This document shows positions 29,848-61,863 of a DNA stretch of 64,000 nt, piece after piece (the stretch's first letter is position 1; each line of letters opens with the position of its first letter). Below the pieces are notes generated by a model. The model saw only the letters and a list, made by a program, of their open reading frames with translations. It was not told the DNA's origin and did not search any database. Source of the stretch: Spirochaetae bacterium HGW-Spirochaetae-4 (GTDB lineage Bacteria > Spirochaetota > Spirochaetia > Sphaerochaetales > Sphaerochaetaceae); the NCBI GenBank assembly GCA_002839335.1, contig PGXU01000013.1:1-64000 (forward strand), read 5' to 3'. Both the position numbers and the translations under genes were made by a program.

Positions 29848-30365
29848 TTTTTGTCCTTGATGGCTTGCGCCAAGCCGAGGACAATGAACCGGTGGAAAGA
29901 CAGACCTTTTGCGTTTACAGAAAAACGCACCTATGCTCAAAGGACTGTCGATTCTTGCTCTTCTTTTAGAGAGAGCAATCCATCGATCATGTCCTCGGCT
30001 ACAGGTGCGCTGCCTGTTTTCGAGTTTTTTAATAAGCCGCTATGCGGCGTCCAGTTCAGAGAGCATCTGCTTCTCTGAATGCTTCAACTTCATTTCAACG
30101 TTTTTGATCGGACTTAGGGATCTTCTTTCAGTTGTTAACCTCCATTATTTTACTGTTGTAAAGTTTTGCTCGAGGTTTGCGAAAATCTATGATAGGATAC
30201 TGACATGCTCCCTCTCCTCTTGCTGTGGTATTTAAAAACCTTTAAATCACACTTACACTTACTATTTAACCAAAGGGGCATCCATAACGACGGTCTACTA
30301 CGGTCTTGAACGGTCTACATCGGACTGGCTGTGGAAACCCATTGCTTTAAGGAGGGATTGGAGTT
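29848..30365. other. 518-base boundary between prophage and defence island
   Basis: No convincing gene. The left part is ordinary sequence, the right part (30100-30280) is AT-rich. It must hold promoters in both directions: for the sigma-like gene to the left and the ABC-3C operon to the right. The only clear structure is the CGGTCT triple repeat (30291-30320). No integrase or attachment site for the prophage was found here. Confidence 0.5.
30291..30320 (+). repeat. three CGGTCT direct repeats with 10-bp period upstream of ABC-3C operon
   Basis: CGGTCTACTA, CGGTCTTGAA and CGGTCTACAT follow each other without a gap at 30291, 30301 and 30311, and a fourth CGG follows. One helical turn per unit is ideal for cooperative binding of a regulator. 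The start codon of the first gene is 46 bases downstream, so the site is placed like an operator. Confidence 0.65.
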
Positions 30366-31490
30366 TTGAAGTTTTATGAATTTGCAAAAATGCTTTATCC
30401 CATATGCGGAGCCGGCGAGACTCGCTATAATTTCGTTATCAGATTGATTGAGAGTATCATTGAAGATGATGCTGAAGATGACTGTGCGGTATTGAGTTAT
30501 TCTCGTGATTATGCTGGGCGCGTTTATAATGGCAGTAAACAAATCAAACCAGCAGATGTCTCTTATATAAACGGGCACATAGATAAGCAAAAATTCGAGG
30601 ACTTTATATCTGGCTTTAGTGAAAGCGCCGCTGAAAGTATTGTAGTTGCTTTAGCAATGAAAGGAATTGTAGCAAATAAGTTCAACTTTCACGAAGTATG
30701 TACTGAAACTTTTGTACAGGTACTCCTTGATGCAGTGAAAGGTGATGCAACTGCAGAGACTAATACTGCCGCCACTAGGGTAAATACAGATTTATACGAT
30801 AAGTACGGTTTTCAACTTTTAATCGAAGCTAGTTTCTATTGTCCAAACGACGGGTGTGCCGAGCCACTGTACTTCAAGAAAAGTGGTAAGGCAGAACCAA
30901 GATATGTTCCGACTGTAGTTGACCCTGAAGGCTCACCTGCGAATCCAAACAATTTGATTGCCTTATGTCCAAAGTGTAGTGATTATTATTGCCAATCCCC
31001 AGGACTTAAAGAAATTCAAAGGATGCAGGCGATTAAGAAGGAAATTGCAAGAGAGTCGTCTTCCCGCGAGGTGGCAGCAGATGTCAAGATCGAATTGGGA
31101 ATCCGACTCGTGCTAGAACGGATTGCTGACGCAAGTGACGATGCACTTAAGGAGCTCACATATACTCCGCAAATGGTGATCAATAAAATCATAGAAGGCA
31201 ATAAAGCACTTCGTCGGAAGGTTCTTAGGAACGTCTCCATGTATTTTGAGTTTACTCATAGTGTGTTTCAAGAGTTGAGTATTGAAGGTAAGCTAAGGTT
31301 TGATAAGGTAGCTGCTCAAATCAGAAATTGTTATGTCGGTGAAAATGATAATGGACGTTCCCAGCCGGAGATCTTTGATGCTTTGGTAAGATGGCTAAAG
31401 GATTTGACTCACGAGGATCAAGCCAGCTGTGAGGCCGTCATATCATATTTTGTACAGAGTTGTGAGGTGTTTGATGCGATTGCCAAGTAA
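30366..31490 (+). CDS. ABC-3C system effector/CTD component with HNH-like zinc motif
   Basis: 374 residues from a TTG at 30366 (AAGGAGGG 10 bases upstream). The centre has a treble-clef pattern: FYCPNDGCAEPLYF and NNLIALCPKCSDYYC, like an HNH nuclease whose second His is replaced by Ser. The last 150 residues are helical (GIRLVLERIADASDDALKELTYTPQMVINKI). It is the first gene of a three-gene unit with a small middle component and a DUF2326 ATPase, the published layout of ABC three-component conflict systems (Krishnan and colleagues, 2020). The first component is usually the effector; nuclease activity is uncertain because of the changed His. Confidence 0.78.
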   Translation: MKFYEFAKMLYPICGAGETRYNFVIRLIESIIEDDAEDDCAVLSYSRDYAGRVYNGSKQIKPADVSYINGHIDKQKFEDFISGFSESAAESIVVALAMKGIVANKFNFHEVCTETFVQVLLDAVKGDATAETNTAATRVNTDLYDKYGFQLLIEASFYCPNDGCAEPLYFKKSGKAEPRYVPTVVDPEGSPANPNNLIALCPKCSDYYCQSPGLKEIQRMQAIKKEIARESSSREVAADVKIELGIRLVLERIADASDDALKELTYTPQMVINKIIEGNKALRRKVLRNVSMYFEFTHSVFQELSIEGKLRFDKVAAQIRNCYVGENDNGRSQPEIFDALVRWLKDLTHEDQASCEAVISYFVQSCEVFDAIAK

Positions 31491-31701
31491 GATTTTCTCA
31501 TATGACGAGAGTATAATCGCCCAGTTTCCCATGCTACTGCGAATACTGTCTGACTCACCCTTGCCCGTACGACAGTTATATGAATTGACACGGGGTTATT
31601 GGGAAAGCATCGGAGCTTATATCGAGGCGCTTGATTGTCTTTATGCCCTTGGTAGAATCCGGTTTGATGATAATAAGGAGAATCTGCTTTATGTTGGTTG
31701 A
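31474..31701 (+). CDS. ABC-3C middle component (MC6-like)
   Basis: 75 residues from ATG 31474: RLPSKIFSYDESIIAQFPMLLRILSDSPLPVRQLYELTRGYWESIGAYIEALDCLYALGRIRFDD. The PxKxxxYxESIxAxFxxLL and the final LYxLGxIxxD are what I know from the small middle components of these systems. It overlaps the first gene by 17 bases and the ATPase gene by 11, so the three are translated together. A winged-helix adaptor role is a family expectation. Confidence 0.8.
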   Translation: MRLPSKIFSYDESIIAQFPMLLRILSDSPLPVRQLYELTRGYWESIGAYIEALDCLYALGRIRFDDNKENLLYVG

Positions 31702-33325
31702 AATTTGGTGCGATAAATTCATGGATAATGGAAAGATACGCCCGAAAGTGAAATTTCGTTCAGGGCTTAATACTATCCTCGGAGATATTAATGCAAGCAA
31801 CTCTATCGGAAAGACTACATTCTTGCTAATAGTAGATTTTGCGTTCGGTGGTGATGACTATGTCAAATCAGATGCCGCTCGCCATATACATGATCACACA
31901 ATTTGTTTTGGGTTTGAGTTTGAGAGCAAAAGGTTTTATTTCTCACGCACCACTCAGACTCCTGGAGAGGTTAATTGCTGTGATGAAGATTACACAATTC
32001 AAAACGTTCTTGCCTTAGATAAATACAATCAATTACTATTTGAGAAATATCAGATTGCACGAAATGGTATTACTTTTAGGAATATTATCGGCCGCTATCT
32101 TAGAATTTATGGGCGCGACAATTTAAATGAAACGAAACCACTTAACAGTGTTGCGGCAGAGAGTGGTGCCAATGCAATAACTGCGCTTCTAAAACTTTTT
32201 GGCCGGTATGATAAATTCGATGAACTGCTTTTACGCAGGAAAAATACTGAAGACGACCGAAAAGCGTTGGCCGGAGCAATTGAATTTGAATACATTCCAG
32301 CTGCCAAGAATAAATCTCAATATAAAAAAACGCAGAAACAGATTGAAATCCTTGAGTCTGAACTTAGCGAATTGCTCGAAAAGCAGGATGAGTTATTGTC
32401 CAAAGCAGATCTGGAGCAGGCAGACACGGCGTCAGCGATTAAGGCTCAGCTTGCTTTTGCCAGAAGACAGCGTAGTCGTCTTTTATCACAGCTTCGCATA
32501 GTGGAGTCAAACCTCCAAAAGCAATCGGGACTCAATGAGGATGATATCGATTCGCTGAGAGATTTTTTCCCCGATGCGAATATTGAGCATATCCATAGAA
32601 TTGAGAATTTTCATCACCAGCTACAGAACATCCTTATCAGTGAATTTGAAGAAGAGAGAGCTAATTTACAGACGCTCATCGAAGGAGCTACACAGGAAAT
32701 CGAATCGATGGAGAAACGGCAACGAGCTTTGGGCCTCCCGATTAAGCTGTCCAAAGCGTTTTTGGATAAATACTCCTCACTCAATATTCATATTGCATTT
32801 TTAAAAAAACAAAATGATTCATATGAAAAACTTAATGAAATTAAAGAAATGAAGAGAGATATAGTTAAGGAACTTGAGGTTGTGGAGGAACAGGAGCTTA
32901 GAGAATTGCAAAACGATATCAATATTCAGATGGCTCATCTTAACGGCTTCATCTATGATGGGACGCGTAAACCGCCAATCCTAAATTTGCAGAGCACCAG
33001 TCAGTACAGCTTCGAAACGCCGGATGACACCGGGACTGGGACGTCGTGTAAAAGCATGATAGTTTTTGACCTTAGCGTTCTTTATATGACGCCACTTCCA
33101 GCAATTGCCCATGACTCTGTAATACTTAAAAATATCGGTGATGCTCCAATTGAAAAAATCATGGAATTGTATTTAAAAAGCCACAAGCAGATTTTTATCG
33201 CATTGGATAAAGATGACTCATATTCTAAACGAACAAGTGCCATTCTCAACCAGACAGCTGTCCTTAGGCTGTCTGACTCTGGGAGTCAATTATTTGGCCG
33301 AGCATGGAACATGCTCGATGCTTAA
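31691..33325 (+). CDS. ABC-3C ATPase with DUF2326 domain (SMC/RecN-like)
   Basis: 544 residues from ATG 31691. Walker A variant GDINASNSIGKTTFLLIVDFAF near residue 31. Residues about 190-440 are coiled coil (KKTQKQIEILESELSELLEKQDELL and onward). The C-terminal 150 residues carry the DUF2326 signature: MAHLNGFIYDGTRKPPILNL, then DDTGTGTSCKSMIVFDLSVLYMTPLPAIAHDSVIL. The ATPase halves come together over the coiled coil as in SMC proteins. It is the sensor/motor of the conflict system and would license the effector on detecting invader DNA (family model). Confidence 0.9.
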   Translation: MLVEIWCDKFMDNGKIRPKVKFRSGLNTILGDINASNSIGKTTFLLIVDFAFGGDDYVKSDAARHIHDHTICFGFEFESKRFYFSRTTQTPGEVNCCDEDYTIQNVLALDKYNQLLFEKYQIARNGITFRNIIGRYLRIYGRDNLNETKPLNSVAAESGANAITALLKLFGRYDKFDELLLRRKNTEDDRKALAGAIEFEYIPAAKNKSQYKKTQKQIEILESELSELLEKQDELLSKADLEQADTASAIKAQLAFARRQRSRLLSQLRIVESNLQKQSGLNEDDIDSLRDFFPDANIEHIHRIENFHHQLQNILISEFEEERANLQTLIEGATQEIESMEKRQRALGLPIKLSKAFLDKYSSLNIHIAFLKKQNDSYEKLNEIKEMKRDIVKELEVVEEQELRELQNDINIQMAHLNGFIYDGTRKPPILNLQSTSQYSFETPDDTGTGTSCKSMIVFDLSVLYMTPLPAIAHDSVILKNIGDAPIEKIMELYLKSHKQIFIALDKDDSYSKRTSAILNQTAVLRLSDSGSQLFGRAWNMLDA

Positions 33326-33336
33326 GGAGGTTTTTT

Positions 33337-33558
33337 ATGGTCATCAGCTATAACAAACTATGGAAATTGCTTATTGATAAAAAAATGAACCGACGAGATC
33401 TCAAGAGTGCGACTGGTATCAGCACTGCAACTATCGCGAAGCTAGGAAAGGGAGGGAATATCACAACCGAAATCCTTGTTAAGATTTGCGAAGCCCTTGA
33501 CTGTAATCTGAACGATATCATGGAACTATCCAATGAAGATAAGAAGGAAAAAAGATAG
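33337..33558 (+). CDS. Xre/Cro-type transcriptional regulator
   Basis: 73 residues from ATG 33337 (AAGGAGG upstream): YNKLWKLLIDKKMNRRDLKSATGISTATIAKLGKGGNITTEILVKICEALDCNLNDIMEL, a complete lambda-repressor-like helix-turn-helix of the minimal type. It ends exactly one base before the hsdM ATG, so it links the ABC-3C genes with the restriction system. Such small regulators often delay restriction relative to methylation or autoregulate the operon; the CGGTCT repeats at 30291 are a possible target. Confidence 0.92.
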   Translation: MVISYNKLWKLLIDKKMNRRDLKSATGISTATIAKLGKGGNITTEILVKICEALDCNLNDIMELSNEDKKEKR

Positions 33559-35067
33559 ATGGCTATTAACAATGAGAGTAATACAGCTGAAATCGGTTTT
33601 GAGAAGCAGATCTGGGCGGCCGCCGATATTCTACGCGGAAATATGGACGCAGCTGAATATAAACACGTCGTATTGGGACTCATCTTTTTGAAGTATATTT
33701 CGGATAAGTTTGAAGCTCGCTACCATGAACTGCTCACGGATCACGATGATGTGGAAGATAAAGACGCTTATACCGAGGTGAACATTTTTTTTGTGCCACC
33801 AACAGCACGATGGAGCGTCATTTCCGAAGCTGCTCACAAAGAAGAAATTGGTACGGTCATAGATAATGCCATGCGTGCCATTGAAAAAGAGAACAAGAGG
33901 TTGAAGGACATCTTGCCGAAAAACTTTGCCCGTGATGAACTGGACAAGCGTCGCCTGGGGAACGTGGTTGATCTTTTTACCAATATTCAGATGATAGAAC
34001 ATGGTGATAGTAAAGACATACTTGGCCGTGCGTATGAATACTGCCTTGCCAGGTTCGCTGAGCAGGAAGGTAAGCGAGCAGGTGAATTCTATACCCCATC
34101 TTGTGTGGTTAAAACACTTGTTGGGGTACTTCAACCGTTTAAAGGCCGTGTATACGACCCGTGCTGCGGTTCCGGCGGGATGTTCGTACAGTCTGTGGAC
34201 TTCGTGGGGCACCACGCTGGCAACATTAATAACCTATCCGTCTTCGGCCAGGATGCAAACCCGACCACCCGCAAGATGGCTTTGATGAACCTCGCCATTC
34301 GCGGAATTGAAGCCGACCTCGGCGCTTATAACGCAGATACGTTCTACAACGACCTGCACAAGACGTTGAAAGCAGACTTCATCCTCGCCAATCCACCATT
34401 CAACCTTTCGGACTGGAACGACGGCAGCCTAAACGACGACCCACGCTGGAAGTACGGCTTGCCACCGTCCGGCAACGCCAACTTTGCGTGGCTTCAACAT
34501 ATGATTTCGCACCTCTCACCGAACGGCAAAATCGGCATGGTGCTTGCCAACGGCTCACTGTCCTCCCAGAGCGGCGGCGAGGGCGAGATTCGCAAGAAAA
34601 TTGTGGAGGACGACCTCGTGGAGGGCATCATCGCCATGCCCACGCAGTTATTCTATACCACGCAGATTCCCGTGTCTCTATGGTTTATTAACCGCGACAA
34701 GACGCAGAAGGGTAAGACACTCTTCATCGACGCTCGCAAGATGGGGACGATGGTTAACCGCCGCCTGCGCGAGACGACCACCGAGGACATCGCCAAGATT
34801 GCCGCCACCTTCAAATGCTTCGATGCCGGAACGCTTGAGGACGTGAAGGGTTACTGCGCTGCCGTCAGCAACGCCGAAATAGCCAAGCAAGATTACATCC
34901 TCACACCCGGACGCTACGTTGGTATCGAAGAGCAGGAGGACGACGGCGAGCCGTTCGAGGAGAAGATGGCACGGCTGACGGACGAACTCTCCGAGATGTT
35001 CAAGCGTTCCCACGAGTTGGAGAACGAAATCAGAAAAAGATTGGGGGTGATTGGGTATGTCATCTAA
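33559..35067 (+). CDS. hsdM: type I restriction-modification methyltransferase subunit
   Basis: 502 residues. N-terminal HsdM domain (FEKQIWAAADILRGNMDAAEYKHVVLGLIFLKYISDKFE), then the methylase: GEFYTPSCVVKTLVGVL, SAM motif I YDPCCGSGGMFVQS, motif IV ILANPPFNLSDW. The NPPF motif indicates adenine-N6 methylation. It modifies the recognition sequence together with HsdS and is needed for restriction with HsdR. The start follows the Xre stop directly; the 3' end overlaps hsdS. Confidence 0.97.
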   Translation: MAINNESNTAEIGFEKQIWAAADILRGNMDAAEYKHVVLGLIFLKYISDKFEARYHELLTDHDDVEDKDAYTEVNIFFVPPTARWSVISEAAHKEEIGTVIDNAMRAIEKENKRLKDILPKNFARDELDKRRLGNVVDLFTNIQMIEHGDSKDILGRAYEYCLARFAEQEGKRAGEFYTPSCVVKTLVGVLQPFKGRVYDPCCGSGGMFVQSVDFVGHHAGNINNLSVFGQDANPTTRKMALMNLAIRGIEADLGAYNADTFYNDLHKTLKADFILANPPFNLSDWNDGSLNDDPRWKYGLPPSGNANFAWLQHMISHLSPNGKIGMVLANGSLSSQSGGEGEIRKKIVEDDLVEGIIAMPTQLFYTTQIPVSLWFINRDKTQKGKTLFIDARKMGTMVNRRLRETTTEDIAKIAATFKCFDAGTLEDVKGYCAAVSNAEIAKQDYILTPGRYVGIEEQEDDGEPFEEKMARLTDELSEMFKRSHELENEIRKRLGVIGYVI

Positions 35068-36187
35068 ACTTTCCGACCTTTGTGCTTTCGCAGACGGACG
35101 AGTTGCCGTTGCCGACTTGGATTTGGATACCTACATTTCCACGGAGAATATGCTTCCGAATAAGGAGGGCATTACCCGCTCGTCTGGACTGCCGACCGTT
35201 TATCAGACACAGGCCTACCGACTGGATGACGTGTTGGTTTCCAACATCCGTCCGTACTTCAAGAAAATCTGGTACGCCGACCGTGACGGAGGCTGTTCTA
35301 ACGACGTGCTGGTGCTGAGAGCGAAGGATTGCTGCATTCCGGGGTTTCTCTACTACCTGCTCTCGGACGACAACTTCTTTAACTACGCCACGGCGACGGC
35401 AAAGGGAACGAAGATGCCACGCGGGGACAAAGGCGCTATTATGCGGTATGAAGTCCCCGACTTACCGCTAGAAGTTCAAATTGGAATCGCCGACACGCTG
35501 TCTGCTCTGGATGCTCGGATAGCCGAAAACCGTGCGATAAACAATCATTTAGAGCAACTAGCGCATACCATTTTCAAATCGTCTTTCATAGGCTACGAAC
35601 CGACAAAACCGTTCACAGAAGTAGTACAAGTCTTGGGCGGTGGTACTCCAAAGACAACAAAGACCGAATATTGGGACGGTTCGATACCATTCTTTACGCC
35701 TAAAGACACTCAAAGTCTTTATATTTTGAATACTGAAAAGACATTGACTGAAGCGGGACTTAGCAACTGTAATAGTCGGCTTTATCCAGTGAATACGGTC
35801 TTTGTTACAGCTAGGGGCACTGTCGGCAAACTCGCTATTGCAGGTGTCCCTATGGCAATGAACCAGTCTTGCTATGCACTTGTAGGAAATAGCGGCTATG
35901 GTCAGCATTTTGCATACCACCTAGCCTTAGAGACGGTTGAACGTCTGAAGCATAAGGCAAGTGGGGCGGTATTCGATGCCATAGTTACAAGAGACTTTGA
36001 AAGCGAAATGGTCGCTGTTCCACCCATTGATGTGGTGAACGAGTTTGAGAATAATGTTAAACCCATTTATGAAGCCCTCCTCAATAACGTTAAAGAGTCT
36101 TTTCGTCTATCGTCTTTGCGCAATAGTCTACTTCCAAAGCTAATGTCAGGCGAGCTAAAAATTGCCGACTCTGGCGACACTAAATGA
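35057..36187 (+). CDS. hsdS: type I restriction specificity subunit, expressed copy
   Basis: 376 residues from ATG 35057. Two target-recognition domains: the first ends at the conserved helix IGIADTLSALDARIAENRAINNHLEQLAHTIFKS (residues about 140-175), the second runs from FTEVVQVLGGGTPKTTKTEYWDG to the second helix (SSLRNSLLPKLMSGELKI). The second domain starts and stops within 15-bp inverted sites (35538-35552 and 36180-36194); the TGA stop is inside the right site. So the second half of the gene is a switchable cassette. Overlaps hsdM by 11 bases. Confidence 0.95.
   Translation: MSSKLSDLCAFADGRVAVADLDLDTYISTENMLPNKEGITRSSGLPTVYQTQAYRLDDVLVSNIRPYFKKIWYADRDGGCSNDVLVLRAKDCCIPGFLYYLLSDDNFFNYATATAKGTKMPRGDKGAIMRYEVPDLPLEVQIGIADTLSALDARIAENRAINNHLEQLAHTIFKSSFIGYEPTKPFTEVVQVLGGGTPKTTKTEYWDGSIPFFTPKDTQSLYILNTEKTLTEAGLSNCNSRLYPVNTVFVTARGTVGKLAIAGVPMAMNQSCYALVGNSGYGQHFAYHLALETVERLKHKASGAVFDAIVTRDFESEMVAVPPIDVVNEFENNVKPIYEALLNNVKESFRLSSLRNSLLPKLMSGELKIADSGDTK
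35538..35552 (+). repeat. hsdS inversion site A
   Basis: TAAACAATCATTTAG in forward orientation, coding for part of I-N-N-H-L in the central helix of HsdS. The match with site D extends to 21 bases (35536-35556). Confidence 0.85.
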
Positions 36188-36194
36188 TTGTTTA
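36180..36194 (-). repeat. hsdS inversion site B
   Basis: The same 15-mer in reverse orientation (CTAAATGATTGTTTA on the plus strand); it contains the hsdS stop codon TGA. Confidence 0.85.
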
Positions 36195-36248
36195 ACCGTT
36201 CCTCCTGCCACCGTTAGAACCCATTTAACCGAAAGATTGGAGGAATAT

Positions 36249-37241
36249 ATGAAAGATAAGCTGATTGCAGGGATACAGGCAAGCATGGCGTCGGTGCTTA
36301 GTCCTGCGCAACAGGAGAAGTTACAGCGGGTACTGACCTACCACCTCCACAATGTGGAAGTTACGGGGCGGCAAGCCGCTGATCCACAAGAAACCGCCGA
36401 GAACGGAGGACTGCTTGAAGTGTTTATAGCCGCAAAAAGAGTGGAAGGTTGCTCGGAGAAGTCGCTGAAATACTACGACTCGACTATCCGACAGATGATC
36501 GATAGCGTTAAAAAGCCTGTGCGGGAAATCAGCACGGACGACCTGCGAGTCTACCTTGCCTACTACCAAAAAGAACGCGGTTCGAGTAAGGTCACGATAG
36601 ACAATATGCGGCGCATTTTCAGCAGCTTCTTCGGTTGGCTGGAGGATGAGGACTACATCTTCAAAAGCCCTGTCCGCCGAATCCACAAGATAAAGGCGGA
36701 TAAGACCATCAAGGACACGTTCTCCGATGAGGGCTTGGAGTTGCTCCGCGACGCCTGCGAGGAAGTCCGCGACTTAGCGATGATTGACCTGCTCGCTTCA
36801 ACGGGAATGCGTGTCGGCGAGCTGGTCGGCTTGAACCGCGAGGACATCAACTTTCAAGAGCGGGAATGCGTGGTGTTCGGCAAGGGAAACAAGGAGCGGT
36901 TGGTTTACTTCGACGCCCGAACTAAAATTCATCTGCAGAACTACCTCGACAACCGCGACGATGACAACCCCGCGCTCTTTGTTTCGCTAACTCTGCCGCG
37001 AGAACGGTTTCTCACCGGTGGCGTGGAAACGCGGCTGCGGGAAATCGGTAAGCGGGCGGATTTGAAGAAGGTACACCCACACAAGTTCCGTAGGACGCTT
37101 GCCACGCGGGCCATTGATAAAGGAATGCCTATAGAGCAAGTACAGCGATTACTTGGTCATGTGAAGATAGATACGACCATGACATACGCAATGGTAAATC
37201 AAGCGAACGTAAAAAACTCGCACAGGAAATTCATCGGATAG
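36249..37241 (+). CDS. tyrosine recombinase, likely hsdS inversion enzyme
   Basis: 330 residues from ATG 36249 (GGAGG upstream; an earlier frame to 36162 overlaps the hsdS end and was not used). A SAM-like N-terminal core-binding domain (FIAAKRVEGCSEKSLKYYDSTIRQ) precedes the catalytic domain with all expected residues: Arg in STGMRVGEL, Lys in GKGNKER, H-x-x-R in HPHKFRRTLATR, His in RLLGHVK and Tyr in TTMTYAMV. It is placed between two hsdS units and between sites B and C, the arrangement of phase-variable type I systems, so it probably recombines the TAAACAATCATTTAG sites. Confidence 0.93.
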   Translation: MKDKLIAGIQASMASVLSPAQQEKLQRVLTYHLHNVEVTGRQAADPQETAENGGLLEVFIAAKRVEGCSEKSLKYYDSTIRQMIDSVKKPVREISTDDLRVYLAYYQKERGSSKVTIDNMRRIFSSFFGWLEDEDYIFKSPVRRIHKIKADKTIKDTFSDEGLELLRDACEEVRDLAMIDLLASTGMRVGELVGLNREDINFQERECVVFGKGNKERLVYFDARTKIHLQNYLDNRDDDNPALFVSLTLPRERFLTGGVETRLREIGKRADLKKVHPHKFRRTLATRAIDKGMPIEQVQRLLGHVKIDTTMTYAMVNQANVKNSHRKFIG

Positions 37242-37253
37242 GAGGACACGGCG

Positions 37254-37868
37254 ATGATTCAAAAATGGAAGCCTACTCGGTTAGGCGATATCTGCAAGAC
37301 GAACCAGCAAACCTATTCGGTAGCTGAGAAGTGGCCGTTCGTCAATTATTTGGACACGGGGAATATCACAGAGAACCGTGTCAGCGAGATAAAACATATT
37401 GTTATCGGTCAGGACACATTTCCAAGTAGAGCGAGGAGAAAAGTCGCTGTCGATGACATCCTCTACTCTACCGTGCGCCCCAACCAGAGGCATTATGGCA
37501 TCGTGAAAGAGGTTCTGCCAAATATGCTTGTCTCCACAGGCTTCACAGTCATTACGGCAAATAAGGCAGTTGCAGACAGCGATTTTCTCTACTATTATCT
37601 CTCGCAGGACGACATCGTTAGGAGCCTTCACGCTATCGGCGAGCAGAGCGTATCGGCGTACCCATCCATAAAGCCGTCTGATATTGAGGTTTTGGAATTG
37701 CTGTTGCCGTCATTGGAGGAGCAACGGGAAATCGGGTACACCCTTCGGGCATTGGACGACAAAATCACCAACAACACGAAGATAAACAATCATTTAGCGT
37801 TACCGAGGCCGGGGATCGATAACTCCCCGGACATCAGACGGGGTAAAAGGCTGTCGCGGGTGGCTTGA
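37254..37868 (+). CDS. second hsdS unit, first recognition domain only
   Basis: A GGAGG precedes ATG 37254. Residues 1-180 are a complete target-recognition domain plus central helix: IQKWKPTRLGDICKTNQQTYSVAEKW, FVNYLDTGNI, then LPSLEEQREIGYTLRALDDKITNNTKINNHL. At site C (37783-37797) the gene runs into the opposite-strand cassette; the final 23 codons are not HsdS and end at a chance stop. In this orientation it makes a half-size protein. Inversion between sites C and D would join it to the cassette at 37790-38431 and restore a full HsdS. Confidence 0.9.
   Translation: MIQKWKPTRLGDICKTNQQTYSVAEKWPFVNYLDTGNITENRVSEIKHIVIGQDTFPSRARRKVAVDDILYSTVRPNQRHYGIVKEVLPNMLVSTGFTVITANKAVADSDFLYYYLSQDDIVRSLHAIGEQSVSAYPSIKPSDIEVLELLLPSLEEQREIGYTLRALDDKITNNTKINNHLALPRPGIDNSPDIRRGKRLSRVA
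37783..37797 (+). repeat. hsdS inversion site C
   Basis: TAAACAATCATTTAG, forward; 17 bases (37781-37797) match site A. Confidence 0.85.
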
Positions 37869-38431
37869 AGATTACAGCTTTCCGCATAATTCGTTTCGAT
37901 GGCAGCGTCCATCGGACTAACCAGTTTCTCAAACTGACGGAGTGCCTCGTCAGAGGGGATTAGCACAGGGAGGGAGGCCATATCATTCTTATTTATAGAG
38001 CCAAAAACCGTACCTTCGCCATTGAAAATATCAAGCTGTTGCTTCAAGGCGAACATCGTGTAGAGAACAAACGACTGATAATCGTTATTGCTTTGGATTC
38101 CCGCCAAGCCGCGGCCAAGGCAACAGGACTCGTAGGCAACGTTCAAATCCCCGACAGGGGCGCGAACGCTTATGAGGACATCTCCTTTCGTCGCCATACG
38201 CTTGGGTTGTGTGGTAAACAGGCGGCGAGTTGGAAAACGAGACCCAAACTCGGCTCGACCTTGATAAAAGACAGTCCCGATGCCGTCCTGGTTATAACTC
38301 ACCCCGTCGGGAGACTGTCCCATCGTGACGGAAGCAATCTCGTTGAGAGTGCCTTCCCGCCAGTCGTCAGGCATCACGCCACCGAACGGCTCGAAGTCCA
38401 CAAACCACGACTTAAAAATGGCCTGCGCCAT
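37790..38431 (-). CDS. silent inverted hsdS cassette, second recognition domain
   Basis: A minus-strand frame continuing from site D: L-E-Q-M-A-Q-A-I-F-K-S-W-F-V-D-F-E-P, then a recognition domain (WREGTLNEIASVTMGQSPDGVSYNQDG, SVRAPVGDLNVAYESCCLGRGLAGI) and the distal helix (SCNLQATRDSLLPRLMSGEL). It ends with a TGA in site C exactly as the expressed cassette does in site B. There is no ribosome site or promoter of its own, so it is silent here. After inversion it would be the C-terminal half of either HsdS. Its recognition domain differs from the expressed one. Confidence 0.92.
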   Translation of the reverse strand: MAQAIFKSWFVDFEPFGGVMPDDWREGTLNEIASVTMGQSPDGVSYNQDGIGTVFYQGRAEFGSRFPTRRLFTTQPKRMATKGDVLISVRAPVGDLNVAYESCCLGRGLAGIQSNNDYQSFVLYTMFALKQQLDIFNGEGTVFGSINKNDMASLPVLIPSDEALRQFEKLVSPMDAAIETNYAESCNLQATRDSLLPRLMSGELSIPGLGNAK

Positions 38432-38436
38432 CTGCT

Positions 38437-38451
38437 CTAAATGATTGTTTA
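38437..38451 (-). repeat. hsdS inversion site D
   Basis: Reverse orientation of the 15-mer (CTAAATGATTGTTTA on the plus strand). With flanks, 38433-38453 is a perfect 21-base inverted match of 35536-35556. Confidence 0.87.
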
Positions 38452-38477
38452 TCCACGTGAGAAGGAGGATTCATCAA

Positions 38478-39677
38478 ATGGCGAACAGAATCCAAGACAA
38501 AAAAATAGAATCAGTAAAAATGTTCGTAGATGAAATAACTTCTCTCCGCCGAGACAGAACCGCAGCAAATGCTGAGGAATGGTTCTTTCGTGGGCAGAAA
38601 AATTCCGGTTGGGAAGTTCGTCCTTACATATTTCGCGGTGATGACTTAGCTTCAGAACATATCTTAATTGAGCGCGCACAAAGACAGAACCCTGTCGAAT
38701 TTCGCAACTGCGTTAACAATTTTGAGATTCTAACCAAGCTGCAACATTACGGCTTAGGAACACGATTGTTAGATGTAACCCTTAACCCTCTTGTTGCGCT
38801 ATTTTTTGCCACTGAACCGTCAGACGAATATATTGAGAACAAAAATGGGCAATACAGTCGTCGTGAACACGATGGTATAGTTTATTTTCGGCTTGTAAAT
38901 GGGTGCGCCTTGCAAGATTTGCAGATAAGAATCGCTCTGTCGATCCCTTTTGTTGAGTTCGGGAAAAGTATGTCATTAGAGGTGTTCTGCTTACGCCTAT
39001 TGGAACAAGGTACTATATCACGTTCGGAATATGAACGATTAATCACTGATGACTACTCGGAGATAATCCGAATCATCCAGACAAATAGTTTTATAATATC
39101 AACCAATAGCAACATCCGCTTGATTCAACAACGAGGTGCCTTTTTACTAGCCCCTGCCATAAACCTAAAAACAAACATTGATGTGAAAACATCTATTCTC
39201 TCAAAGGCTAAAACAAATCTTGCAATAGAGTTTGAGGGATACTATACCATTCCTGTAAAAGCCAAGAATGATATCCGAGCCGAGCTGAATTTCTTCAATG
39301 TCAACGAAGCAACGCTGTTTCCGGAACTGGAGCATCAAATGAATTATATTCAGAGACTAGCCCAACAGGCAGTGGGTACAGTTGAAGAATATAGGCAATA
39401 TGCGTACCGAACATATTCGCAAACACCTGTTGAGTTTGACAGAATAACACCAGATGTTAATGGCATACTTAAAAAAGTGTTACCAACAATTAATGCAGAG
39501 CATATTGAAGTGTTGAGAGCAGAGATCAATACCGCTATCGCTACTATTGACTGGCATCTTAAGGATAGTATCATCAGCGGTTTACGCCGATCAATAACTA
39601 ATGTGTTGGCCGACATGTTTTCTGCGGTTGAAGCAAAAAGCAAGGCCAAAGAAGTGGTTGAAGAATTGATAAATTAG
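38478..39677 (+). CDS. FRG-domain protein in the restriction operon
   Basis: 399 residues from ATG 38478 (GGAGG upstream). The FRG domain is clear: EWFFRGQKNSGWEVRPYIFRGD, then LTKLQHYGLGTRLLDVTLNPLVALFFATEP and DGIVYFRL. The rest is helical (NVNEATLFPELEHQMNYIQRLAQQ) and lacks a known domain. FRG proteins are frequent in defence islands; a nucleic-acid or ADP-ribose-type activity has been proposed but I know no firm assignment. It is inserted between hsdS and hsdR with 13 bases to hsdR, so it is probably co-expressed with the type I enzyme. Confidence 0.88.
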   Translation: MANRIQDKKIESVKMFVDEITSLRRDRTAANAEEWFFRGQKNSGWEVRPYIFRGDDLASEHILIERAQRQNPVEFRNCVNNFEILTKLQHYGLGTRLLDVTLNPLVALFFATEPSDEYIENKNGQYSRREHDGIVYFRLVNGCALQDLQIRIALSIPFVEFGKSMSLEVFCLRLLEQGTISRSEYERLITDDYSEIIRIIQTNSFIISTNSNIRLIQQRGAFLLAPAINLKTNIDVKTSILSKAKTNLAIEFEGYYTIPVKAKNDIRAELNFFNVNEATLFPELEHQMNYIQRLAQQAVGTVEEYRQYAYRTYSQTPVEFDRITPDVNGILKKVLPTINAEHIEVLRAEINTAIATIDWHLKDSIISGLRRSITNVLADMFSAVEAKSKAKEVVEELIN

Positions 39678-39690
39678 AGGAGGTGTTCCT

Positions 39691-42600
39691 ATGCCATATA
39701 CCGAGGCAAACTACGAAAACGCGGTGATAGAAGTGTTCCGCGACACATTGGGCTACGGTTACGCCTACGGACCCGATATCATGCGGGACTACGCCGACCC
39801 GCTTTATTTGGATGAGCTTCGGACCGCCTTGCGGCATGTCAATCCGAAGCTGCCGGAAGCTGCCTTCACCGAGGCAGTCTATAAACTGCGCAACTTCGAA
39901 GGTGGCACGATATTGCAGAGGAACGTTCAGTTCATGGACTACCTACAAAACGGTGTGAGCGTGAACTTCTTCGATAAAGATGAACAGCGGTCGGCTCTGG
40001 TGCGGCTCGTGGACTATGAGAACACAGACCGCAACACCTTTACTGCCGCCAACCAGTGGACGATTACCGAGAACAGTGAGAAGCGCCCCGACGTTATCGT
40101 GTTCCTGAACGGTCTGCCAGTGGTCGTGTTTGAACTCAAGTCGCCCAGCCGTGAGGAAACGGACGCTTCCGAGGCGTTCCGTCAGCTTCGCAACTACATG
40201 ATTGAGATTCCGTCCTTGTTCATCTATAACGCCTTTTGCGTGATGAGCGACCTCGCCACATCCAAGGCTGGGACAATCACTGCCGACGAGGACCGCTTCA
40301 TGGAGTGGAAAACAAAGGACGGTAGCTACGAGAATACGCAGTATGCCCAGTTCGACACCTTCATTGAGGGAATGTTCGACAAGGCACGGCTACTGGACAT
40401 CATCAAGAACTTCATCTGTTTCTCGGCGGACTCGAAAATCCTCGGCGCCTACCACCAGTATTTCGCGGTCAAAAAAGCCATCGCCTCCACCGCCAAGGCG
40501 ACCGAAACGGACGGGCGCGGCGGCGTGTTCTGGCACACCCAAGGCAGCGGTAAATCCCTGTCGATGGTATTCTACGCCCATCTGCTGCGGGAGTCTTTAA
40601 ACTCACCTACCATCGTGGTGCTGACCGACCGCAACGACCTGGACGACCAGCTTTTCGGGCAGTTTGTCAAGTGCGCCAACTTCCTGCGTCAGACCCCGGA
40701 ACAGGCAAAGTGCCGCGAACATTTGAAGAAACTGCTTGCAGGGCGGACGGCAAACGGCATCATCTTCACGACTATGCAGAAGTTCGAGGAATCCTCCGAA
40801 CCGCTCTCCGATCGACGCAACGTTATCGTGATGGCAGATGAAGCCCATCGCGGACAGTATGGCTTAGAGGAAAAGGTGGACGCCAAGACGGGGCGTGTGA
40901 TTCTCGGCACAGCGAGGATTATCCGCGACAGCTTGCCGAATGCGACCTACATCGGCTTCACAGGAACGCCAATCTCGTCCAAAGACCGCTCCACCATCGA
41001 GGTGTTTGGCAATTACATCGATATCTACGACATGACCCAAGCCGTGGAGGACGGTGCGACTCGTCCCATCTACTATGAGAGCCGCGTCATCCACCTCAAA
41101 CTGGACGAGGATGTCCTGCGCCTAATCGACGCCGAATACGACATCATGGCGACCAACGCCGAGCCATACGCCATCGAGAAGAGCAAGAAGGAACTCGGCC
41201 AAATGGACAGCATCCTCGGCGCGGAGCAAACCGTCACCGCCCTATGCGAGGACATCGTGAAGCACTATGAGGAGAATCGTCAGAACGAACTCACGGGCAA
41301 GGCGATGATAGTCGCCTATTCCCGCCCGATTGCCATGCGTATCTACCACAAAATGCTTGAAATGCGCCCCGAATGGACCGAGAAACTCGGTGTGGTGATG
41401 ACTTCGGGCAACAACGACCCCGAAGACTGGCGCCAGATTATCGGCAACAAACGCCACAAAGACGAGATGGCGAAAAAGTTTAAGGACAACGATGACCCGC
41501 TGAAAATTACTATTGTGGTGGATATGTGGCTCACAGGCTTTAACGTGCCGTCGCTCGCCACCATGTATGTTTACAAGCCGATGATGGGGCATAACCTCAT
41601 GCAGGCTATCGCCCGCGTCAACCGTGTTTACAAGAATAAAGAAGGCGGCTTGGTGGTCGATTACATTGGCATCGCCGGGGCTTTGAAGCAAGCGATGAGC
41701 GACTACACCAATCGCGACAAGCAGAACTACGGCGAACAGGACATTGCCAAAACCGTCCTGCCGAAGTTTATCGAGAAACTGGAAGTTTGCCGCGATCTAT
41801 TCCACGGTTATGATTATTCCAGCTTCATGAACGAAACCTCAACCGATTTCACACGTGCCAAAGCCATTAGCGGTGGTGTGAATTACTTGACGGCTATAGA
41901 TACGTCGACACGTCCAACATTGGTGCATGAAGGCAGCTACCGGTCGGATACACTGGGGTCTGAGCCATCAATTACCTACGACGACACTAAGAGCCGCAAG
42001 GAATCCTTCATCAAAGAAGCTATGCTTCTGCGGCAAGCTCTGTCTCTATGCCGGTCGCTCCTTACGCCGACACAGCGGTTTGAAGCCGCTTACTTCGAGG
42101 CAGTGCGTACCTTGCTCACCCGCATTGCCGGGGAGGGCAAGCCACTGTCCTTGAAAGAAATAAATGCCCGCGTCAACGAACTGTTGAAAGCGAGCATTCA
42201 AAGCGAGGGAGTTATCAATCTGTTTTCCGACGTGGACACGGGCTTCTCTCTCTTCGACCCGAAGTTCCTTGAGGAAATCGCCAAGATGAAGGAAAAAAAC
42301 CTAGCCGTCGAGATTCTGAAAAAACTTCTCGCCGAGCAGGTGTCTCTCTATCGCAGGACAAACCTTGTCAAATCAGAGAAATTTTCGGAGATGCTCTCAC
42401 GCGCTGTAAAAGCGTACATCAATGGAATGCTCTCCAATGAGGAAGTCATCGCCGAATTGGTGAAGATGGCAAAGGAAATGGCATCGGCATCCGTCGAGGG
42501 TGACGCGATGGGGCTGACAGATGAGGAGTTGGCGTTCTACGACGCATTGACCCGCCCTAAAGCAGTCAAGGACTTCTACGCCAATGAGGAACTCGTGGCG

Positions 42601-42789
42601 ATGACTCACGAACTCACGGATATGCTCCGCAAGAACCGCACAATCGACTGGCAGAAGAAGGAGTCCGCACGTGCGGGTATGCGACGGATGGTCAAGAAAC
42701 TACTAAAAAGATACAAATACCCGCCGGAAGGGATGGAGGATGCAATCTTAACTGTCATTGGGCAATGCGAAATGTGGACGGATAGTTAA
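39691..42789 (+). CDS. hsdR: type I restriction endonuclease subunit
   Basis: 1032 residues, ribosome site GAGGAGG. N-terminal nuclease domain with the PD-(D/E)xK core RPDVIVFLNGLPVVVFELKSPS (residues about 130-152). Motor domain: Walker A WHTQGSGKSLSMVFYAHLL, VLTDRNDLDDQLF, DEAH box VIVMADEAHRGQYG, TYIGFTGTPI, and the second RecA fold (MIVAYSRPIAMRIYHKM, TGFNVPSLATMYVYKPM, QAIARVNR). The C-terminal helical domain for assembly is complete. It cuts unmodified DNA after translocation. No frameshift, so the enzyme should be active. Confidence 0.97.
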   Translation: MPYTEANYENAVIEVFRDTLGYGYAYGPDIMRDYADPLYLDELRTALRHVNPKLPEAAFTEAVYKLRNFEGGTILQRNVQFMDYLQNGVSVNFFDKDEQRSALVRLVDYENTDRNTFTAANQWTITENSEKRPDVIVFLNGLPVVVFELKSPSREETDASEAFRQLRNYMIEIPSLFIYNAFCVMSDLATSKAGTITADEDRFMEWKTKDGSYENTQYAQFDTFIEGMFDKARLLDIIKNFICFSADSKILGAYHQYFAVKKAIASTAKATETDGRGGVFWHTQGSGKSLSMVFYAHLLRESLNSPTIVVLTDRNDLDDQLFGQFVKCANFLRQTPEQAKCREHLKKLLAGRTANGIIFTTMQKFEESSEPLSDRRNVIVMADEAHRGQYGLEEKVDAKTGRVILGTARIIRDSLPNATYIGFTGTPISSKDRSTIEVFGNYIDIYDMTQAVEDGATRPIYYESRVIHLKLDEDVLRLIDAEYDIMATNAEPYAIEKSKKELGQMDSILGAEQTVTALCEDIVKHYEENRQNELTGKAMIVAYSRPIAMRIYHKMLEMRPEWTEKLGVVMTSGNNDPEDWRQIIGNKRHKDEMAKKFKDNDDPLKITIVVDMWLTGFNVPSLATMYVYKPMMGHNLMQAIARVNRVYKNKEGGLVVDYIGIAGALKQAMSDYTNRDKQNYGEQDIAKTVLPKFIEKLEVCRDLFHGYDYSSFMNETSTDFTRAKAISGGVNYLTAIDTSTRPTLVHEGSYRSDTLGSEPSITYDDTKSRKESFIKEAMLLRQALSLCRSLLTPTQRFEAAYFEAVRTLLTRIAGEGKPLSLKEINARVNELLKASIQSEGVINLFSDVDTGFSLFDPKFLEEIAKMKEKNLAVEILKKLLAEQVSLYRRTNLVKSEKFSEMLSRAVKAYINGMLSNEEVIAELVKMAKEMASASVEGDAMGLTDEELAFYDALTRPKAVKDFYANEELVAMTHELTDMLRKNRTIDWQKKESARAGMRRMVKKLLKRYKYPPEGMEDAILTVIGQCEMWTDS

Positions 42790-42803
42790 GGGAGGGTTAA
42801 GCA

Positions 42804-44225
42804 ATGAACGCTTTCAAAAGCAATATCTACAAGTATCTTGGTGGGACATGCCAATACTTGATACCGCTGTATCAGAGAACTTATAGTTGGGAGCGTGAGC
42901 AGTGCGCCCGCCTTTGGAACGATATCGTAAACCTCCACACCACGCACAGGGACGGGCACTTCGTCGGCTCTATTGTCCGCATTGACGAAGACTCAGCCGC
43001 AGGGTCTACCCTTGCGATGATTATCGACGGCCAGCAGAGGCTTACCACGCTGACCCTGCTTCTTATTGCCCTACGCGATTACGCAGCAACACATTCGGAC
43101 TGCGCTGTAAACCCTAACAAGATAACGGATACGCTTCTCTTGAACCAGTATGAAACGGGCAATGCTAAGTATAAGCTGCTCCTTACACAGTCTGACAGGG
43201 AAGCGTTGATTAAGAAGATTGAGAGTGCGCCGATTTCTTATACGATAAAATCCCGTGTTCTGGACAACTACGACTTTTTCTCAGGGCTAATCAGCAAAGG
43301 TGAGATTGCGCCTTCCGACCTGTACGATTCTATTGGCAAACTGCAAATCGTTGACATCGTTCTCGACCGTCAGTATGATGACCCGCAGGCAATTTTCGAG
43401 AGTCTTAACTCAACAGGTATGGACTTGAAGGACTCCGATCTCATACGCAATCATTTGCTGATGGGCTTGGACTCCGCAACCCAGATGTATGTCTACAACA
43501 ACATCTGGGGGCCGACTGAGCTTCTATTTGACTACGAACACCAAAGCGAGCTATTGGATAACTTTTTTCGCGACTACCTTACAATGAAGCTGGGTAGGAT
43601 CCCCCGCAAGAATGAGGTTTACAAGGAGTTCTGCGTTTATCAGAATGGCGGCGGTCAGACTATTCGAGACCTCTGTCAAGATATATACCGCTTTGCCAAG
43701 TACTACTCAAATATGTATTTCGTCCGGAGCGGCGATGCCATGTTAAAATCGCTTTACAGTGACATGAAGGCAATCCGTATGGAGGTTGCTTTCCCGTTCC
43801 TTTTAAGAGTCCACGATGATTGCGACAAGGGATTGATAACAATAGAGGAAATGCGAGAAGTATTGCAATTTTGTGTGAGCTATATCTTGCGTCGTGCTGT
43901 TTGCGACATCCCAACGAATTCCCTGAACAAGACTTTCGCTACGATGAAAAACGATATCAAGCCGGACGATTACCTTAACTCGGTAAAAGCGTTTTTCATC
44001 TTGCTTGATTCATACAAAGAATACCCGAACGAGTGTGACATCCTCATCAAACACTTCCGGTCACTGAGAAAGATCCTTGTTGCTGGTAAGAACAATGCTT
44101 CCCGTCTCCTTCAGCCTTATTCGGTCAACCAATTGGAAGAACAAAAGCGTCTCCTGCCTGTTGAGCTTGCAGTATCCCACCTCATCGACGATAAGGCAGG
44201 AATACTTGGAAAGTCCGTTCAGTAG
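42804..44225 (+). pseudogene. DUF262 (GmrS-like) gene truncated by IS remnants
   Basis: The frame encodes 473 residues, but only the part up to about 44060 belongs to the family. The DUF262 domain is clear: YLIPLYQRTYSWEREQCARLWNDI, HFVGSIV, MIIDGQQRLTTLTLLLIAL, and later FESLNSTGMDLKDSDLIRNHLL. The DUF1524/HNH (GmrD) part that normally follows is missing: from 44061 on the DNA is an IS21-type istB remnant on the other strand, and the last 55 residues are its antisense. GmrSD-like systems cut modified phage DNA; this copy has lost the nuclease half, so it is probably inactive. It follows hsdR by 14 bases. Confidence 0.85.
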
Positions 44226-59940: not shown

Positions 59941-61851
59941 TTATTTTATTAATTTGTTTACTGTTATGAATAGTTTTTCGAATCTACTTATGGTTGATTT
60001 CTCCCAATCGTGTATAGTAGATATGTTTTGTGATAAATAACGCGCGATACGATAATGATTAAATCTATCCTGATGGATTATTTTATTGATCTGGGGAATA
60101 ATTGATTTATCGGTTGAAAGTTTCTTTATATCAATCTGTTCATAATCCTTTTTATACTCAGAGTTAAACCATTCGAGGTACTCTCTCTTTTCAAACATAT
60201 CTTCCAACTCTGCTGGCTTAATGGGTCCTGTAAATTCATGAAAAAATAGCACATTACTTTCTTTGATGATTTTGTCAAAGACCAAATCTCTTATACGAGT
60301 TTGCCCTTTTTGGTCGATGAACGTGTCCAAAACACAAACAATGTTTAGATTGTTTCCTCTTAGGAGTGAAATAAACGTTGCAACTTTATCCAAACCTCCG
60401 ACCGGGACGATTGTAAATTTCTCATTCAGGGATTCCTTCCCCAGGTTTCTCAACAAATCCGACATGATAGTCAGAATAACTAAATCTGCTACACCTTCCA
60501 CGAGTAAATTGTTTTCTGAGATGTATAGATTTTGGGCTAGATTGTAACCCAATGCTGCTTGTAAGGGGAATAATGTACCCTTGTCCTTTTCTTCTATCGC
60601 ATTAGAAATGCTTGTGCCAACTTTTGTCTCGTTGGAATCGTAGGCAGTACGTATTTCATGCAGCTTTGTTGAATCGATCATGAAGGGAGAATGAGTTGTG
60701 TAAATTACCTGATATTTTGGTGTGAGCTTTTCATCAATATACCGAAGCAAATCTTTTTGCGCCTCTGCATGGAGGTTTAATCCTGGTTCATCGAGTAATA
60801 AAATCATATTGTTAATCTGGTTAATTTTCTGAAACCAAATAAAGAAAGAAAAAAACCATATAAACCCTTTGCTTCTATTACTTAATGGAAGGGTGACTCG
60901 GTGTTTTGTATTTCGAATTCGAATATTTAGATATTTATCATTTGCGGTAGTTTCAATATCAAATGTAATCTCTAGGTTGCTATTCGTCGACCAGTAATCT
61001 GAAAAGGCATCAGTAATGCTGTTTGAGGTAGCTTCTAATTCTGCTATGTATGCTTCATGATTATTATCTGTAATTAGCTTTTTAACGTCAATGCGAGCTA
61101 ATTCGAATAGAGCTCTAGAGATTTCAAGTTGAGGTTTTGTGAAATCATTATCAACAATCCCGCCTGCAATTTTGGATAAAGGTATTCTTTGTGGAAGAAG
61201 AAAATATTCGTCGAAATACCAAAATTTTGGAATCCTCGGCTCTATATACTTTTTCATCAAATACTTTGATAGGAGTGATTGTTCCTTTAAATTCCCAAAA
61301 GAGAATGTTTTAACTAACGTTTCTGCGATTGATTTAGTTTCCTCATGAGATGATAAATATGTGCAGAAATCATTCACATTTTCAATTTTGGCAAGTTCTT
61401 CTTTATGGCCCTCTGGTATACCAATTTTTAGAATGTAGTTTACTATAAATGCTTTCTCGGAAACCTTTGGAGTTGATATGGAAAGGGCATTGTTGTAATC
61501 CCTAGAAGCGACGATAGTGGTTTCCAATAAGACATTCTCTCCACAGTCTTGAATAATTGCATCAATGGTTTCAGCCTTTAGTGAGAATTTACATGAGATT
61601 ACTTTCAAATTGTTTTCAGGATTTTCTGATTCATATTTTTTTAATTCAGTTCTTGGGTATTCCAGGGTCTTGTTAAATTTGTATGAGGAGTCTTTTTCAT
61701 CGAAATAATTAAATCTAGACAAGGCTTCCAAAAATGCAGTTTTCCCGGACTCATTTTTCCCTACCAATCTTGTGCAACTCCCTTCAATAGGGACAATTTG
61801 CTCTGTAAGAAAACTTTTATACTTTGTAATGGTAACTTCTAGTAATCTCAT
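59941..61851 (-). CDS. OLD-family ATPase/TOPRIM nuclease
   Basis: 636 residues from ATG 61851 (GGAG upstream; an ATG four codons earlier is possible). N-terminal ABC-like ATPase: TRLVGKNESGKTAFLEALS (Walker A), RSKGFIWFFSFFIWF (signature region), MILLLDEPGLNLHAEAQKDLL (signature end and Walker B) and VIYTTHSPFMID. A C-terminal TOPRIM follows: NNLLVEGVADLVILTIMSDLL (catalytic Glu), TIVPVGGLDKVATFISLL and IVCVLDTFID (one Asp of the usual DxD). OLD proteins restrict phages; this one is alone, without a UvrD-like partner, so of the class 1 or stand-alone type. AT-rich. Located between two recombinase copies, suggesting it came as cargo. Confidence 0.88.
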   Translation of the reverse strand: MRLLEVTITKYKSFLTEQIVPIEGSCTRLVGKNESGKTAFLEALSRFNYFDEKDSSYKFNKTLEYPRTELKKYESENPENNLKVISCKFSLKAETIDAIIQDCGENVLLETTIVASRDYNNALSISTPKVSEKAFIVNYILKIGIPEGHKEELAKIENVNDFCTYLSSHEETKSIAETLVKTFSFGNLKEQSLLSKYLMKKYIEPRIPKFWYFDEYFLLPQRIPLSKIAGGIVDNDFTKPQLEISRALFELARIDVKKLITDNNHEAYIAELEATSNSITDAFSDYWSTNSNLEITFDIETTANDKYLNIRIRNTKHRVTLPLSNRSKGFIWFFSFFIWFQKINQINNMILLLDEPGLNLHAEAQKDLLRYIDEKLTPKYQVIYTTHSPFMIDSTKLHEIRTAYDSNETKVGTSISNAIEEKDKGTLFPLQAALGYNLAQNLYISENNLLVEGVADLVILTIMSDLLRNLGKESLNEKFTIVPVGGLDKVATFISLLRGNNLNIVCVLDTFIDQKGQTRIRDLVFDKIIKESNVLFFHEFTGPIKPAELEDMFEKREYLEWFNSEYKKDYEQIDIKKLSTDKSIIPQINKIIHQDRFNHYRIARYLSQNISTIHDWEKSTISRFEKLFITVNKLIK

Positions 61852-61863
61852 GATTTTCTCCAT

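What the first reader, a model, noticed from the sequence alone, without database searches (positions are those of the whole stretch)
35538..38451. Invertible hsdS cassettes: type I restriction specificity predicted to switch
Four copies of TAAACAATCATTTAG lie at 35538 (+), 36180 (-), 37783 (+) and 38437 (-); sites A and D match over 21 bases. They bracket two C-terminal recognition-domain cassettes, one in frame behind the expressed hsdS, one reversed behind a second N-terminal hsdS half. Both cassettes end with their stop codon inside the site, and a tyrosine recombinase with all catalytic residues lies between. A-D, C-D and further inversions would give four HsdS proteins from two N- and two C-terminal domains, plus off states. 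This is the plan of phase-variable type I systems known from streptococci and others; the particular site and set look specific to this locus.
Basis: partly seen in the sequence, partly recalled or inferred. Interest (0 to 1): 0.88.

Follow-up and report, generated by a model that had tools for sequence, protein, structure and literature searches.

The report
Self-shuffling DNA-recognition gene in prophage
This bacterium carries, beside a prophage, a restriction-modification system whose DNA-recognition gene can be re-cut and re-joined by its own recombinase at four copies of one short sequence; relatives are already known to switch this way, so it is a well-built new member of a known kind of switch, found here in a spirochaete relative.

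Summary
Four exact copies of TAAACAATCATTTAG, alternating +,-,+,-, occur nowhere else in the 3.6 Mb genome. They bracket two C-terminal HsdS cassettes and, between these, a segment carrying a XerA-type recombinase with a second HsdS N-terminal half. In-silico inversion gives 16 arrangements and four HsdS proteins; as found, one is on.

This is the plan of SsuCC20p, a Streptococcus suis system with four TAAATCATCATTTA sites whose switching was shown to need its recombinase (PMC10790761). Identity to a streptococcal homologue (S. macacae) is 74% for the recombinase, 63% for HsdM and 75% for HsdR. Related records show inversion: Lactococcus plasmids identical in the surrounding genes have their cassettes swapped or flipped exactly at the sites, and in a 96-97% identical pair the recombinase segment itself is reversed.

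Three points go beyond the papers I read. Sites across 24 loci read TAAA-N6-TTTA, with N6 shared within a locus but varied between loci. The recombinase segment is reversed, sites intact, in many genomes. In reversed states geometry forces exactly one complete HsdS.

No reads or other strain of this organism were available: switching in this host is inferred. Verdict: new member of a known kind.

The parts
33559..35067 (+). hsdM, type I N6-adenine methyltransferase (502 aa)
   Evidence: Pfam N6_Mtase 1.3e-106 and HsdM_N
35051..35552 (+). hsdS N-terminal half N1 (first recognition domain); overlaps the end of hsdM, likely ATG at 35057
   Evidence: ORF 35051-36187; Methylase_S on the whole ORF
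35538..35552 (+). recombination site A (TAAACAATCATTTAG; codes INNHL in HsdS)
35538..36187 (+). cassette X: C-terminal HsdS half, in frame behind N1 (on)
36180..36194 (-). recombination site B; holds the stop codon of cassette X on the other strand
36249..37241 (+). XerA-type tyrosine recombinase (330 aa), inside the invertible middle segment
   Evidence: NCBIfam NF040815 249.5 bits, cutoff 220; Pfam Phage_integrase; catalytic residues invariant
37254..37797 (+). second hsdS N-terminal half N2, now without a C-terminal partner
   Evidence: Methylase_S 2.3e-11
37783..37797 (+). recombination site C
37790..38451 (-). cassette Y: C-terminal HsdS half, reversed and silent
   Evidence: Methylase_S 7.7e-9; open 220 codons from site D
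38437..38451 (-). recombination site D
38478..39677 (+). FRG-domain protein (PADLOC PDC-S15) between site D and hsdR; accessory gene at a variable place
   Evidence: Pfam FRG 3.9e-17; PDC-S15 8e-105
39691..42789 (+). hsdR, type I restriction subunit (1032 aa)
   Evidence: PADLOC REase_I 1.1e-299; TIGR00348
33337..33558 (+). small Cro/C1-type regulator directly before hsdM; possible operon regulator
   Evidence: HTH_26 5.5e-18; 60% and 42% identical matches before hsdM in L010 and L011

Best explanation
[quoted passage not shown] The XerA-like recombinase acts on four identical sites of the form TAAA-N6-TTTA: two recombinase-binding arms around a 6-bp exchange region, here CAATCA. Inverting A-B, C-D, B-C or A-D joins either N-terminal recognition half (N1, N2) to either C-terminal half (X, Y), giving four HsdS proteins and so four methylation and restriction specificities, plus states with none or two complete HsdS. 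Each site serves three purposes: an in-frame HsdS linker (I-N-x-x-L), the stop codon of the incoming cassette on the other strand, and the crossover site. Shown here: the anatomy, the open frames of all junctions, and rearranged homologues with breakpoints at the sites. Shown by others in S. suis: recombinase-dependent switching and new methylomes. Inferred: that this host's copy is active, the 6-bp exchange region, and the target motifs (unknown).
For: Four exact alternating sites, unique in the genome. All 16 reachable arrangements computed; every N/C junction gives a full-length HsdS. Intact hsdM, hsdR and recombinase. Lactococcus plasmids pJM2A and pUCCL627F are 100% identical in hsdM, recombinase and hsdR but have the two cassettes swapped between slots at 100% identity, ending at the sites; pJM1A has slot 1 inverted. 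Viral contig L117 against pJM2A: hsdR 97.3% and the site B-recombinase stretch 96.0% identical, but the recombinase segment is reversed, with the join at the site. On the recombinase tree this orientation changes at least 8 times in 29 rows, about as often as with shuffled labels (mean 8.9). 75 of 77 junction sites in 24 loci carry their own locus's core (67 read directly, 8 as the reverse complement of the same core); cores agree between loci in 8% of pairs. In S. suis, deletion of xerD froze the allele.
Against: No reads and no second arrangement of this organism. The only other copy, an IMG/VR contig, is 100% identical over 6993 bases and in the same state from A through the recombinase, so the locus could be slow or locked. 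The promoter between site B and the recombinase is weak or unclear in the window (TTAGAA where relatives have TATAAA or TATAGA).
Confidence: 0.9

Rival explanations
1. A locked relic: the locus was built by past inversions, but in this lineage the recombinase is unexpressed or inactive and the system is an ordinary fixed type I system with a spare half-gene.
For: Identical arrangement from A through the recombinase in the one independent copy; weak promoter-like sequence before the recombinase.
Against: The recombinase is full length with all catalytic residues; the four sites are still exactly identical, including synonymous positions, and all silent halves remain open reading frames, which decay would erode.
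Confidence: 0.09
2. Identity of the four sites is kept by coding constraint on the HsdS linker (INNHL) or by homologous recombination, not by site-specific recombination.
For: The site does code a conserved HsdS linker, and conserved stretches next to some cassettes (67 nt, 78%) could recombine by homology.
Against: Site B lies at a cassette end, not at an in-use linker, yet is identical. The core changes freely between loci (10 cores in 24 loci) yet is shared within a locus. Breakpoints in 100% identical plasmids fall at the sites. In S. suis switching needs xerD.
Confidence: 0.03
3. The recombinase is mainly the prophage's integrase and hsdS shuffling is incidental.
For: The locus adjoins a prophage and the IMG/VR provirus call ends at the recombinase stop.
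Against: It keeps company with split hsdS genes, not integration modules, in Lactococcus, Enterococcus, Ligilactobacillus and Streptococcus; a separate serine recombinase lies at 62205-63218.
Confidence: 0.03

Closest known systems
SsuCC20p of Streptococcus suis (PMC10790761; PMC5198162)
   Same: hsdM, hsdS, recombinase, second hsdS half and hsdR with four TRDs; two cassettes each flanked by an identical pair of 14-bp repeats; four HsdS alleles; carried on a prophage region; site TAAA-N6-TTTA (TAAATCATCATTTA); recombinase-dependent switching proven there.
   Different: Core CAATCA instead of TCATCA; a host in the class of Treponema instead of a streptococcus (the paper found SsuCC20p only in streptococci); an FRG protein beside hsdR, where SsuCC20p has two hypothetical proteins; other recognition domains.
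SpnIII / cod (Spn556II) locus of Streptococcus pneumoniae with CreX/PsrA (PMC4948785, PMC6620402, PMC7096588)
   Same: Locus-encoded tyrosine recombinase shuffles hsdS halves by inversion; expression of the recombinase depends on its own orientation.
   Different: Three unequal repeats (15, 85, 298 or 333 bp) and six alleles; conserved 10-bp core ATTATGGGAA, unlike TAAA-N6-TTTA.
Type I RM 'shufflon' of Lactococcus megaplasmids pMPJM1/pMPJM2 (PMC6458302)
   Different: DUF3800 gene where the window has FRG. Mapping of the paper's plasmid names to these records is my inference.
Mycoplasma pulmonis hsd loci (cited in PMC5903667 and PMC4948785)
   Same: High-frequency inversions give chimeric HsdS from a few halves.
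   Different: Different gene order and sites (from general knowledge; not compared here).

Membership tests
Phase-variable type I RM by hsdS inversion | hsdM, hsdS and hsdR genes intact | tested here: met
Phase-variable type I RM by hsdS inversion | Two or more hsdS (half) genes with inverted repeats at domain junctions, in frame in all combinations | tested here: met
Phase-variable type I RM by hsdS inversion | More than one arrangement observed in one strain | not testable with these tools
   no reads held; the one other copy is identical
Phase-variable type I RM by hsdS inversion | Different methylated motifs per allele | not testable with these tools
   needs methylation data
SsuCC20p type | Recombinase and second N-half between two cassettes, each flanked by an identical inverted pair | tested here: met
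   description
SsuCC20p type | Site of form TAAA-N6-TTTA | tested here: met
   S. suis site TAAATCATCATTTA
SsuCC20p type | Recombinase, HsdM and HsdR homologous to the streptococcal ones | tested here: met
   S. macacae L009, same site: 74%, 63% and 75% identity; S. suis proteins themselves not compared
SsuCC20p type | Prophage location | tested here: met
   capsid, portal and terminase genes upstream; IMG/VR provirus includes part of the locus
SpnIII / CreX type | Core ATTATGGGAA in repeats of three lengths | tested here: not met
   window sites are four copies of TAAACAATCATTTAG; core
XerA-type tyrosine recombinase | Curated model above cutoff and R-K-H-R-H-Y residues | tested here: met
   NF040815 249.5 against 220 bits

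The most novel reading that the evidence does not exclude
Inversion of the recombinase-carrying middle segment is a mode switch. In the forward mode the two cassettes flip independently and 0, 1 or 2 HsdS are made. In the reversed mode both N-halves face one cassette, so each flip swaps one complete HsdS for another with no off state, while the recombinase is uncoupled from the hsdM promoter. Eight loci with four or more sites in the reversed state all have exactly one complete HsdS, as the geometry requires, and orientation changes often among relatives.
Probability: 0.25. Interest if true: 0.5.

Novelty: new member of a known kind. Interest (0 to 1): 0.42.

Why it matters
It extends a switch proven in S. 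suis and described there as restricted to streptococci to a spirochaete relative, and shows a large mobile family across Spirochaetota, Bacillota, plasmids and proviruses. The TAAA-N6-TTTA rule, with a locus-specific 6-bp centre, gives a simple search key for finding such switches and a testable prediction (matched cores recombine, mismatched cores do not). Reversed recombinase segments with intact sites bear on a point left open in S. suis, where that state was not seen in any assembly.

Tried and rejected
Promoter scan: no more promoter-like sites than in shuffles, nothing convincing before the recombinase. Contig ends as evidence: the T. socranskii contig begins and ends inside the outer sites (L005/L082), which fits mixed orientations but could be a repeat-induced break, so I give it little weight. 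The 'exactly one complete HsdS' excess in forward loci (11 of 14, against 50% if flips are free; binomial about 0.03, my arithmetic) is weak and the loci are not independent. L007, L205 and L084 carry related recombinases without matching inverted sites. L085/L086 carry different cores on + and - sites and were left out of the inversion counts. Structure prediction was not run: chimeric proteins were not admissible and the families are clear by sequence.

Full report
Observation. The four 15-mers are exact, alternate in strand and lie where stated; the genome has no others. Gene order is HTH - hsdM - N1 [A] X [B] - recombinase - N2 [C] Y(reversed) [D] - FRG protein - hsdR. N1X is the only complete HsdS as found; N2 runs into reversed DNA and stops after 28 codons. 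Both cassettes end with TGA inside the site. The recombinase has the full catalytic set and scores above the curated cutoff of the XerA-like model.

What can be made. Cutting at the middle of each 14-mer and applying the four possible inversions gives 16 arrangements: four proteins N1X 376, N1Y 380, N2X 392 and N2Y 396 aa, two arrangements with none, two with two, twelve with one. When the middle segment is reversed, N1 and N2 face the same cassette from both sides, so exactly one complete HsdS always exists. A-C and B-D are direct pairs, so excision is possible too. S. suis isolates reported to lack xerD, TRD2 and TRD3 look like the A-C product (my inference).

Relatives. Close recombinases occur in Treponema, Clostridiales and Oscillospiraceae MAGs, Streptococcus macacae and lactobacilli, in 18 of 393 sampled genomes of the phylum, on plasmids of Lactococcus, Enterococcus and Ligilactobacillus and in proviruses. 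Two same-genus genomes lack it, which fits horizontal gain. A contig of G265, in the window's class, is the reverse complement of the T. socranskii contig, so I infer a spirochaete host.

Inversion seen in nature. pJM2A and pUCCL627F are identical in hsdM, recombinase and hsdR; their two cassettes have traded slots at 100% identity, with ends at the sites. pJM1A has slot 1 inverted and the same cassette also in slot 3. Ligilactobacillus pBNS11 (L200) and provirus L136 have no complete HsdS, an off state; L010 has two. For the middle segment: L117 and pJM2A are 97.3% identical in hsdR and 96.0% in the site B-recombinase stretch but opposite in orientation, joined at the site. Eight loci with four or more sites and hsdM on the contig are in the reversed state (L008, L083, L092, L093, L095, L103, L122, L131; the hsdM match of L095 is weak). 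Orientation changes at least 8 times on the tree of 29 recombinases, about as often as with shuffled labels (mean 8.9); the window and its nearest relative L083 (86%) differ. These are comparisons between strains and lineages, not within one culture, and assembly error in single records cannot be excluded.

The site. In 24 loci the site is TAAA-N6-TTTA. Ten cores occur; between loci they agree in 8% of pairs, but 75 of 77 junction sites carry their own locus's core in one reading direction or the other. The loci were chosen partly for having such sites, so the 75 of 77 is somewhat favoured by selection. Constant arms with a variable but locally matched centre is what a tyrosine recombinase needing identity in the exchanged stretch would leave (general knowledge); the exact 6-bp limits are an inference. 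The last base of the core is always A and the first C or T, as expected from coding I-N-x-(N/H)-L.

Known work. SsuCC20p of S. suis has the same plan, identical 14-bp repeats TAAATCATCATTTA around both outer domains, four alleles and a prophage location. Deleting xerD fixed the allele, and the copy downstream of xerD is also expressed. Its authors saw no inverted xerD in S. suis assemblies and called the system restricted to streptococci. SpnIII/CreX uses a different core, and there creX is expressed 2.6-fold more when aligned with hsdRM, which makes the orientation of the middle segment worth testing. A 2016 paper already noted homologues of the pneumococcal recombination system in Treponema, and Lactococcus megaplasmids were said to carry a type I RM shufflon. 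I did not find the TAAA-N6-TTTA rule in the papers searched, but most subscription papers are not held.

Verdict. The finding is real and correctly read. As a kind it is known. The additions are the host group, the site rule and the reversed middle-segment states. Switching in this host is very likely but untested.

Noticed in passing
window 2400-28524: A prophage (capsid, portal, terminase, VapE, DNA polymerase A, DUF2800) lies directly before the hsd locus; an IMG/VR provirus (3300029890_000054) matches window 30249-37241 at 100% and its call ends at the recombinase stop codon.
   Followed up: partly
window 30366-44225: A run of defence-type genes on one strand: ABC-3C/LmuA-like protein, DUF2326 ATPase, the hsd locus, FRG (PDC-S15) and a GmrSD_N (DUF262) protein.
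   Followed up: partly
window 38478-39677; L195 11219-12715: The gene between site D and hsdR varies: FRG here, DUF3800 in Lactococcus, none in several loci; it may be a slot for exchangeable accessory genes.
   Followed up: no
L197 8277-8939 and 10520-11182; L010 5182-5820 and 7287-7925: Both slots hold the same cassette (identical in L197), so one cassette was lost, perhaps by recombination between two copies in different states, or through misassembly.
   Followed up: partly
L085, L086 (offsets -1439 to 3110 from the recombinase): Plus-strand sites have core TACTAA and minus-strand sites core TCAGAA, so inversion should be blocked and only direct-repeat exchange possible.
   Followed up: no
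L083 (6 sites): A Treponema-family genome carries six sites and an extra cassette slot in a locus otherwise like the window's; part is masked by N.
   Followed up: no
L007 6001-6993: A recombinase 76% identical to the window's stands alone, with no hsd genes within 6 kb, in a G+C-rich MAG contig.
   Followed up: partly
window 59941-61863 and 62205-63218: OLD-like ATPase and a serine recombinase at the far end of the window, possibly another mobile element.
   Followed up: no
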